A stretch of 64,000 nt of DNA, taken from contig JAITMD010000021.1 in assembly GCA_031277535.1 (NCBI GenBank), forward strand, positions 124,001-188,000. The letters run 5' to 3'. This DNA comes from Flavobacteriaceae bacterium (GTDB lineage Bacteria > Bacteroidota > Bacteroidia > Flavobacteriales > Flavobacteriaceae). The notes beneath the pieces were generated by a model. It searched no databases. It was not told the origin of the DNA and saw nothing but the letters and a program-made list of their open reading frames with translations. Positions 38,701 to 48,082 of the stretch are shown here, in pieces. Both the position numbers and the translations under genes were made by a program. Numbering within the stretch: the stretch's first letter is position 1; each line of letters begins with the position of its first letter.

Positions 38701-38737
38701 CCAGAGCAACATACACGGACTTCGCCAGAGGTTGGTC
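38701..38737 (-). ncRNA. putative L19 leader element
   Basis: In the predicted rplS leader, a GC-richer island stands out from AT-rich flanks: RNA CCAACCUCUGGCGAAGUCCG followed by UGUAUGUUGCUCUGG. CAAC can pair with GUUG, and CUCUGG occurs twice. Ribosomal-protein leaders are known for L19 in other bacteria. I cannot confirm that this one belongs to a described flavobacterial family. Confidence 0.45.
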
Positions 38738-46274: not shown

Positions 46275-47567
46275 TTATTTAATCGGTTTTTTTAATGACG
46301 TAAACGCTTTATTTTTAATATGAATAATATAAGAATGGAATCTTGTAACTTGTTGAGATTTATAGATTGTTTGTGTACCTGATGATGTGTAAGCTACTAA
46401 GACAATTAAAACTAAGTATGGAATCATTGATATTCCAAACAATTCTGCTCCCATAATAGCACAAGCAACAGGCGTTTTAGTAGCACCTGCAAAAACAGCA
46501 ATAAAACCTAATGCAGCAACAAAACTAACTTCTAAAGAAAAGTATGGTGCCAAGAAACTACCTAATGTAGCACCTATGAAAAATAAAGGGGTTACTTCAC
46601 CTCCTTTAAATCCTACACCCAAGGTTAAAGCTGTAAGTAATAGCTTTAATATAAAAACTTCTCCTCCTTGATTATGAATAAATGAATCAGATAAAGTTGG
46701 TAAACCTAAACCTAAATATCTGTAATCCCCAATTAAGGTGATGATACCAATAAATACAATAGCTCCTATAAAAGGTCTAAGAGGAGGATACTTAATGTAT
46801 TTACTACTTAATAGGGCAATATGTTCTGTTGCTTTAATGAAAAGTAAGGTTGCTAACCCAAATAGAATACCTCCACCTATCAGTTGAATAAGTAGCAAAA
46901 AAGTAATATCAGGAATACTATAAACACTATAGTGACTATGCGAAATTCCCCATAGATTACAAGTTATATGAGCGATAAAGGCTACTAATACAGTAGGGAA
47001 TATAGTTTTGTAGGGTACCTGTTTAAAATGCATAAGTTCAAATGCAAATAATATACCTGCAAATGGAGTACCAAACACAGATGCAAAACCTGCACTGATT
47101 CCCATAAGTAGAATAGCTTTTCTTTCAACTTTCGTAAGTTTGATAAAAGAAGATATTTGATCCGCAATTGCACCTCCCATTTGTACTGCAGTACCTTCTC
47201 TTCCAGCAGAACCACCAAATAAATGGGTAATTAACGTTCCAAATAAAACCATAGGAGCCATTTTGAAAGGAATTGTTTTTTGTGGGGCATAGTATTCCTC
47301 TATCAAAAGATTATTTCCCTTATTTGCAGTATCGCCATAGTAATGATAATAGAGCCCAACGATGAAACCTCCTATTGGTAAAAAGTATAATAAGTATGGA
47401 TGTAAGTTTCGCAGATTAGTTACTTCAGCTAATAAATATAAGAATAGAGCAGAAGCACTACCAATAGGGATCCCTATGAATATAGCAAGTATTATCCATT
47501 TAAAAAGATACGTAAAAAAAGAATTTGTAGTAAAAAGATGTCCTTCTGATGTTTTAAAATTAATCAT
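46275..47567 (-). CDS. CLC-type channel/antiporter of the fluoride (CLC-F) branch
   Basis: The 430-residue protein has about ten to twelve membrane helices and the CLC signatures GREGTAVQMGG (after FGGSAG) and GFKGGEVTPLFFIGATLG. The GSGIPE filter segment of chloride-type CLC proteins is replaced by KGNNLLIEE, matching my memory of the GNN-type filter in fluoride/proton antiporters. This branch exports fluoride from the cytoplasm. The leader carries a fluoride riboswitch, strong independent support for the assignment. Confidence 0.88.
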   Translation of the reverse strand: MINFKTSEGHLFTTNSFFTYLFKWIILAIFIGIPIGSASALFLYLLAEVTNLRNLHPYLLYFLPIGGFIVGLYYHYYGDTANKGNNLLIEEYYAPQKTIPFKMAPMVLFGTLITHLFGGSAGREGTAVQMGGAIADQISSFIKLTKVERKAILLMGISAGFASVFGTPFAGILFAFELMHFKQVPYKTIFPTVLVAFIAHITCNLWGISHSHYSVYSIPDITFLLLIQLIGGGILFGLATLLFIKATEHIALLSSKYIKYPPLRPFIGAIVFIGIITLIGDYRYLGLGLPTLSDSFIHNQGGEVFILKLLLTALTLGVGFKGGEVTPLFFIGATLGSFLAPYFSLEVSFVAALGFIAVFAGATKTPVACAIMGAELFGISMIPYLVLIVLVAYTSSGTQTIYKSQQVTRFHSYIIHIKNKAFTSLKKPIK

Positions 47568-47607
47568 AATCTACCTGATAGGTTTATACATTAGTATTTC
47601 TATTGTT

Positions 47608-47654
47608 AGTAGACGTCATCAGCGCTTAGGCGGTTCAAGGCAGACATCATTGCC
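47608..47654 (-). promoter_or_regulatory. fluoride riboswitch (crcB motif)
   Basis: The minus-strand RNA reads GGCAAUGAUGUCUGCC, UUGAA, CCGCCUAAGCGCUGAUGACG, UCUACU. It shows P1 GGCA/UGCC, a second stem CGC-CUAA-GCG, the conserved GCUGAUGnCnnCUACU tail, and a pseudoknot GAUGUC with GACGUC that pairs over all six positions. This is the crcB (fluoride) aptamer layout. It lies about 40 nt upstream of the CLC-F start codon. Confidence 0.92.
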
Positions 47655-47668
47655 ATAAATATATAGTG

Positions 47669-47676
47669 CAAAGATA
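47669..47676 (-). promoter_or_regulatory. -7 box of the fluoride-responsive transcript
   Basis: CAAAGATA reads TATCTTTG on the minus strand; transcription would begin about 8 nt before the riboswitch P1 stem. Confidence 0.6.
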
Positions 47677-47705
47677 TAAAAAAAGCCTGATTATAAATCA
47701 GGCTT
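47677..47705 (-). terminator. intrinsic terminator of the DUF3276 gene
   Basis: AAGCCTGATT-ata-AATCAGGCTT stem with a T run on the minus strand, just before the promoter of the CLC-F gene. Confidence 0.88.
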
Positions 47706-47722
47706 TATATGAATTTAAAAGA

Positions 47723-48082
47723 TTATATATCATCAAAACTAACGTCAGTATAGCTACTTACGTTCTCATCTCTTGTATATTCCTTTTTAAAATCTTTTTG
47801 ATGTCTTTCAGAAATAACTTCCTCTCCTTTGTTTTGCAAAACGTAGTCTGTCATTTCATCTAAGATTTCTTTGAATGCACCGAAGTCTTCTTTATATAAA
47901 TAAATCTTGTGCTTTTTGAAGTGGAAAGAACCATCATCTTCAGTGAATTTTTTACTCTCTGTAATCGTAATGTAATAATCATCAGCTTTTGTAGCTCTCA
48001 CATCGAAGAAGTAAGTTCTTCTTCCTGCTCTTAATACTTTTGAGAAAATTTCCTCTTTTTCTAACATTTCGTTATCTCTCAT
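47723..48082 (-). CDS. DUF3276 / PUR-family nucleic-acid-binding protein
   Basis: The 119-residue protein has the PUR-like core EEIFSKVLRAGRRTYFFDVRATKADDYYITITESKK and HFKKHKIYLYKEDFGAFKEILDEMTDYVLQNKG, followed by a charged tail. Bacterial PUR proteins such as Borrelia BpuR bind DNA and RNA and act as regulators; the fold is a beta-sheet with a helix. It is monocistronic. Confidence 0.88.
   Translation of the reverse strand: MRDNEMLEKEEIFSKVLRAGRRTYFFDVRATKADDYYITITESKKFTEDDGSFHFKKHKIYLYKEDFGAFKEILDEMTDYVLQNKGEEVISERHQKDFKKEYTRDENVSSYTDVSFDDI

What the first reader, a model, noticed from the sequence alone, without database searches (positions are those of the whole stretch)
47608..47654. 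Fluoride riboswitch in front of a CLC-F gene
The minus-strand leader matches the crcB aptamer in every main part: P1, second stem, conserved GCUGAUGnCnnCUACU tail, and a six-pair pseudoknot with one GU pair. The downstream protein has the GNN-type filter in place of GSGIP. The RNA and the protein support each other. This makes the channel a fluoride exporter rather than a chloride channel as a generic annotation would say.
Basis: partly seen in the sequence, partly recalled or inferred. Interest (0 to 1): 0.62.

Follow-up and report, generated by a model that had tools for sequence, protein, structure and literature searches.

The report
Fluoride riboswitch controlling CLC-F exporter gene
A short RNA element that senses fluoride sits directly in front of a gene for a fluoride-proton antiporter (CLC-F) in a flavobacterial genome; this is a real but well-known kind of pairing, and comparison with about a hundred relatives shows how the RNA probably switches the gene on in bacteria that do not use Shine-Dalgarno sequences.

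Summary
Rfam RF01734 matches window 47603-47663 (-) at 47.8 bits (cut-off 34), the only such element in the genome. The 430-aa gene that starts 36 nt downstream carries all three published CLC-F signatures (GNNLL, GREGT, GEVTP), and its best solved relative is the Enterococcus CLC-F F-/H+ antiporter (6D0J). The genome has no Fluc/CrcB. In 150 genomes of the genus, 93 have this CLC-F, 57 have Fluc, and one has both, so CLC-F and Fluc appear to fill the same role.

Riboswitch-controlled CLC-F genes have been known since 2012, so this is a new member of a known kind.

The new part is the expression platform. The aptamer's 3' tail (GUCUACU) can pair with the 7 nt ending one base before the AUG (GGUAGAU). 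Across 29 dissimilar flavobacterial leaders, tails fit their own leader far better than swapped ones (z 7.4; control segments about 0). There is a TAnnTTTG promoter in front and no terminator between aptamer and AUG. This indicates translational control by start-site occlusion, in a clade whose ribosomes ignore Shine-Dalgarno sequences. Nothing was tested at the bench.

The parts
47678..47706 (-). Intrinsic terminator of the upstream DUF3276 gene, which separates it from the fluoride unit
   Evidence: Terminator scan, stem 47706-47682 with 11 pairs, T-run after it; sequence
47669..47676 (-). Flavobacterial sigma-A -7 box TATCTTTG (TAnnTTTG); implied transcription start about 47664
   Evidence: Sequence. 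TAnnTTTG lies within 45 nt upstream of the aptamer in 90 of 102 related loci, 4.8% expected by shuffling. Box position -12 to -5 from PMC9723704
47603..47663 (-). Fluoride riboswitch aptamer, RF01734
   Evidence: cmscan 47.8 bits, full length
47639..47654 (-). P1 hairpin GGCA-AUGAUGUC-UGCC; loop strand GAUGUC (47643-47648) forms the pseudoknot
   Evidence: Sequence and cmscan alignment
47623..47632 (-). P2 hairpin CGC-CUAA-GCG
   Evidence: Sequence, cmscan, RNAfold
47612..47617 (-). 3' pseudoknot strand GACGUC
   Evidence: Six pairs (one G-U) with the P1 loop; sequence
47608..47614 (-). Switch strand, 5' arm GUCUACU: part of the pseudoknot strand plus the conserved CUACU tail
   Evidence: Pairs with 47569-47575 in the RNAfold MFE and centroid; same arm pairs with the pre-AUG leader in relatives
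47569..47575 (-). Switch strand, 3' arm GGUAGAU, ending 1 nt before the AUG
46275..47567 (-). CLC-F fluoride/proton antiporter gene, 430 aa, GNNLL / GREGT / GEVTP
   Evidence: ORF; Pfam PF00654 224 bits; 6D0J E 3.7e-64; signatures read from the translation, defined in PMC11139923

Best explanation
A fluoride-responsive ON switch drives a fluoride exporter. Transcription starts at a TAnnTTTG promoter just in front of the aptamer (inferred from the motif). Without fluoride, the aptamer's 3' tail (GUCUACU) pairs with GGUAGAU directly before the AUG, so the start site lies in a hairpin and translation is low (inferred from comparative pairing and folding). When fluoride is bound, the tail is held in the aptamer pseudoknot, the start region opens, and CLC-F is made (inferred from the known aptamer structure). 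CLC-F then expels F- in exchange for H+ (inferred from homology to a solved, characterised antiporter). Because Flavobacteriales ribosomes do not use Shine-Dalgarno pairing, the switch probably works by structural occlusion of the initiation region rather than by hiding a Shine-Dalgarno sequence (inferred).
For: Aptamer: RF01734 47.8 bits, single copy. Exporter: three CLC-F signatures (PMC11139923); 6D0J E 3.7e-64 against 8e-8 or weaker for Cl-/H+ ClcA structures. No Fluc in the genome. In the genus CLC-F is in 93 of 150 genomes and Fluc in 57 of 150, with one genome holding both (35 expected, hypergeometric 4e-39, not corrected for relatedness). Association: 106 related aptamer loci parsed, 102 before CLC-F and 4 before a Fluc-like ORF. 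Switch: tail-to-leader complementarity, own versus swapped leaders, z 8.8 for 41 cluster representatives and z 7.4 for 29 (13 similar ones reduced to one); P1-loop and P2 controls -0.7 and -0.8. Arms differ completely yet stay complementary: GUCUACU/GGUAGAU, CCUGAUUAA/UUAAUCAGG, ACGUCUAG/CUAGGCGU, GUCUAUUAAA/UUUAAUAGGC. Occupying the aptamer core lowers the cost of opening -20..+15 from 8.6 to 5.1 kcal/mol in the window (control 8.6) and from 11.0 to 5.6 on average. No terminator lies between aptamer and AUG; the longest U-run there is at most 5 in all 102.
Against: In the window alone the alternative helix is not significant: p 0.08 against shuffled leaders, fold z -1.05 and -1.56. A first, less complete blocking of the aptamer changed window accessibility by only 0.25 kcal/mol. 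A number of the 41 representatives have only a 4-5 pair helix that is no better than chance (for example L019, L023, L032, L052, L074). In many relatives the 3' arm ends 16-20 nt before the AUG, where blocking initiation is less obvious. RNAfold ignores the pseudoknot and ligand. No expression, binding or transport data exist here.
Confidence: 0.8

Rival explanations
1. The same aptamer and exporter, but control acts on transcription: the alternative hairpin promotes termination (intrinsic or Rho-dependent) in the absence of fluoride.
For: Many known fluoride riboswitches are transcriptional (PMC13273304). In relatives with a distal arm the hairpin lies 16-20 nt before the AUG.
Against: No terminator-like site lies between aptamer and AUG in the window; leader U-runs are 3 or shorter in 88 of 102 loci and never exceed 5. 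In the window the 3' arm abuts the AUG, leaving no room for a U-tract.
Confidence: 0.12
2. The RNA is a degenerate or non-switching aptamer and CLC-F is expressed constitutively.
For: Most CLC-F genomes of the genus have no detectable aptamer (22 of 150 genomes have one above cut-off, 93 of 150 have CLC-F), so the gene can do without it. P2 is only 3 pairs here.
Against: Full-length model match with a complete pseudoknot and the conserved tail; promoter motif directly in front; tail-leader pairing kept across dissimilar relatives.
Confidence: 0.06
3. The protein is a chloride or general anion transporter.
For: Generic family models say chloride channel.
Against: All three CLC-F signatures; closest solved relative is CLC-F; the genome's other CLC (L002), with a CBS domain, has neither GREG nor GEVTP and only 22% identity; strict alternation with Fluc in the genus.
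Confidence: 0.02

Closest known systems
Fluoride riboswitch (crcB RNA motif), RF01734
   Same: Full aptamer: P1, P2, pseudoknot, conserved GCUGAUGAC..CUAC tail; placed before a fluoride exporter gene
   Different: Expression platform is a tail-to-start-site hairpin in a clade without Shine-Dalgarno use; the best-studied examples use intrinsic terminators, and the translational examples named in PMC13273304 are from Burkholderia and Pseudomonas
CLC-F F-/H+ antiporters (Enterococcus casseliflavus CLC-F, PDB 6D0J; riboswitch-controlled CLC antiporters, Stockbridge et al. 2012 as cited in PMC11139923)
   Same: GNN-type filter, GREGT, GEVTP, CLC homology over residues 24-407
   Different: Filter GNNLL rather than the Enterococcus GM-type; a Bacteroidota member, the phylum in which CLC-F is most frequent
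CBS-domain CLC of the same genome (L002)
   Same: Pfam Voltage_CLC
   Different: No CLC-F signature, 22% identity, no riboswitch

Membership tests
RF01734 fluoride riboswitch | Covariance model above the gathering score | tested here: met
   47.8 against 34 bits
RF01734 fluoride riboswitch | Pseudoknot between the P1 loop and the 3' tail | tested here: met
   GAUGUC/GACGUC, six pairs, one G-U
RF01734 fluoride riboswitch | Placed 5' of a fluoride-resistance gene on the same strand | tested here: met
   36 nt before CLC-F
RF01734 fluoride riboswitch | Binds fluoride and changes expression | not testable with these tools
   Needs in-line probing and a reporter
CLC-F | GNNLI/GMGLI filter motif | tested here: met
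   GNNLL, last residue I to L; GNNLL is also the commonest form found in the related riboswitch-linked proteins, 58 of 102 (PMC11139923)
CLC-F | GREGT/V with the gating glutamate | tested here: met
   GREGT; aligned with the Enterococcus GREGV
CLC-F | GEVTP with the extra glutamate (E318 in Enterococcus) | tested here: met
   GGEVTP (PMC12035849)
CLC-F | F- over Cl- selectivity and H+ coupling | not testable with these tools
   Needs reconstitution
Translational riboswitch | Ligand-free pairing of an aptamer strand with the initiation region | tested here: met
   Comparative test z 7.4, accessibility change; weak for the window alone
Shine-Dalgarno-masking riboswitch | Ribosome depends on the masked Shine-Dalgarno sequence | tested here: inconclusive
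   AGG lies at -16..-4 in 67 of 102 leaders, but Flavobacteriales SD-dependent control is reported to be limited to rpsU (PMC9976891)

The most novel reading that the evidence does not exclude
Flavobacterial fluoride riboswitches switch translation without a Shine-Dalgarno sequence: the aptamer tail directly masks the non-Shine-Dalgarno initiation region, with a sequence-diverse platform that co-evolves with the tail. In some relatives a second contact, between the aptamer's P1 3' strand (UGCCUUGA) and an AAGGUA/AAGGCA before the AUG, may add to the masking (z 2.7, suggestive only).
Probability: 0.5. Interest if true: 0.42.

Novelty: new member of a known kind. Interest (0 to 1): 0.27.

Why it matters
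It corrects a generic 'chloride channel' annotation to fluoride exporter and shows the sensor that probably controls it. The comparative set gives a ready system for asking how riboswitches control translation in Bacteroidota, whose ribosomes ignore Shine-Dalgarno sequences: the pairing is short, abuts the AUG and can be broken and restored.

Tried and rejected
Single-sequence folding of the window leader: not significant on its own. A first accessibility calculation that blocked only the pseudoknot and tail showed almost no effect in the window, because UGAUG of the core then paired with the coding region; blocking the whole conserved core gave 1.7-3.6 kcal/mol. A six-codon in-frame upstream ORF (AUGUAUAAACCUAUCAGGUAG, 47571-47591) was considered as a regulatory uORF; by eye most relatives' leaders lack such an ORF, so it was set aside as chance. 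Sigma-70 consensus promoters were near chance level and the wrong type for this clade. Literature searches for fluoride riboswitches in Bacteroidetes or Flavobacteria in the held library gave nothing relevant; that library lacks most subscription papers, so absence there is not proof of novelty.

Full report
WHAT WAS CHECKED. RF01734 matches window 47663-47603 on the minus strand over its full length at 47.8 bits (gathering score 34), E 3.7e-10. It is the only RF01734 match in the 3.77-Mb genome. P1, P2, the tail GCUGAUGACGUCUACU and the six-pair pseudoknot with one G-U (GAUGUC with GACGUC) are present as described.

THE PROTEIN. The gene begins 36 nt after the match (46275-47567, 430 aa). Pfam sees only 'Voltage gated chloride channel', and the NCBIfam ClcA/ClcB models match far below their cut-offs. 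The closest solved structures are the three entries of the Enterococcus CLC-F fluoride/proton antiporter (E about 1e-64 to 1e-63); ordinary Cl-/H+ ClcA structures follow only at 8e-8 or weaker. CLC-F proteins are recognised by GNNLI/GMGLI, GREGT/V and GEVTP (PMC11139923); the window protein has GNNLL, GREGT and GEVTP. The glutamate of GEVTP corresponds to the extra inner glutamate E318 of the Enterococcus protein (PMC12035849). The genome's other CLC (locus L002) has a CBS domain, none of these signatures and 22% identity.

GENETIC CONTEXT. There is no CrcB/Fluc in the genome. In 150 genomes of the same genus, 93 have a close CLC-F, 57 have Fluc, one (G519) has both and, by subtraction, one has neither. 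The one with both is 79% complete and in 440 contigs. Chance would put both in about 35 genomes (hypergeometric 4e-39, not corrected for relatedness). The review cited above reports that the two are usually mutually exclusive, about 3% of strains having both; this genus shows it almost without exception. It is strong indirect evidence that this CLC-F does the same job as Fluc.

HOW COMMON. RF01734 is above cut-off in 22 of 150 genomes of the genus, 50 of 400 in a larger draw, 21 of 400 across the family and 36 of 348 across the order. I read 106 of 110 fetched loci: 102 lie directly before a CLC-F gene and 4 before a Fluc-like ORF (the Fluc assignment is by eye from the translations). Riboswitch control of roughly 30% of CLC-F genes is already reported (PMC11139923). 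The pairing itself is therefore ordinary.

THE SWITCH. A terminator of the upstream gene has its stem at 47706-47682. A TATCTTTG box at 47669-47676 fits the flavobacterial TAnnTTTG -7 box, which spans -12 to -5 (PMC9723704), and puts the transcription start near 47664, at the aptamer's edge. The same motif precedes the aptamer in 90 of 102 relatives, with 4.8% expected. There is no terminator between aptamer and AUG. In the ligand-free fold the aptamer tail GUCUACU (47608-47614) pairs with GGUAGAU (47569-47575), which ends one base before the AUG. This uses three bases of the pseudoknot strand, so the two states exclude each other.

IS IT MORE THAN CHANCE? In the window alone, no (p 0.08). Comparatively, yes. 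Leaders were clustered by similarity (41 representatives) and each tail was scored against its own leader and against swapped leaders. Own pairing is much stronger: z 8.8, and z 7.4 after reducing the 13 CCUGAU-type leaders to one (29 representatives). The P1 5' strand with loop and the P2 part give -0.7 and -0.8. The arms change completely while staying complementary, for example CCUGAUUAA/UUAAUCAGG, ACGUCUAG/CUAGGCGU, GUCUAUUAAA/UUUAAUAGGC, ACGUCUACA/UGUAGAUGU. The 3' arm mostly lies either 0-7 nt before the AUG (as in the window) or 16-20 nt before it. Marking the aptamer core as occupied reduces the calculated cost of opening -20..+15 from 11.0 to 5.6 kcal/mol on average, and from 8.6 to 5.1 in the window, where a control block changes nothing. 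A weaker version of that calculation showed little effect in the window. The swap test does not fully remove relatedness among representatives.

WHY THE PLATFORM IS THE INTERESTING PART. Flavobacteriales mRNAs lack Shine-Dalgarno sequences. Initiation in F. johnsoniae depends on structure near the start and on adenines at -3, -6 and -12/-13 (PMC6847099), and Shine-Dalgarno-dependent control is reported to be limited to rpsU (PMC9976891). A switch whose 3' arm covers -8 to -2, including A-3, would act by occluding that region directly. Against a simple view, AGG occurs at -16..-4 in 67 of 102 leaders. In the CCUGAU type it is explained by pairing with the tail; in the distal type it may pair with the aptamer's P1 3' strand (swap test z 2.7, p 0.005), which is suggestive only.

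WHAT IS SHOWN AND WHAT IS INFERRED. Shown by computation: aptamer identity, CLC-F signatures, absence of Fluc, alternation with Fluc, tail-leader complementarity beyond chance across relatives, promoter motif. Inferred: fluoride binding, ON logic, translational rather than transcriptional action, F-/H+ antiport, SD-independence.

VERDICT. The finding is correct and mostly ordinary: a new member of a known kind, with a modestly interesting, testable platform.

Noticed in passing
38707-38734 (-): L19-Flavobacteria ribosomal protein leader (RF03130), 40 bits, above its gathering score; supports a flavobacterial origin of the window.
   Followed up: no
L015 and L135 (genomes G311 and G146, different genera): A fluoride aptamer followed by a Fluc-like gene is 99.94% identical over 1604 nt between two genera, with a pyrophosphatase-like ORF downstream: recent transfer of a fluoride-resistance module, or contamination. 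G146 also has a riboswitch-CLC-F locus (L013).
   Followed up: partly
L018, L024, L027, L042, L043, L053 leaders: AAGGCA/AAGGUA just before the AUG is complementary to the aptamer's P1 3' strand UGCCUU(GA): a possible second long-range contact in the distal-arm class (z 2.7).
   Followed up: partly
L074: A leader with a CCUGAU-type tail that lacks the usual UUAAUCAGG partner, so its switch may be lost or different.
   Followed up: no
47571-47591 (-): In-frame six-codon upstream ORF ending 3 nt before the CLC-F AUG and overlapping the switch arm; most relatives lack one, probably chance.
   Followed up: partly
47723-48082 (-): DUF3276 gene upstream, separated by its own terminator; no link to fluoride seen.
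   Followed up: no
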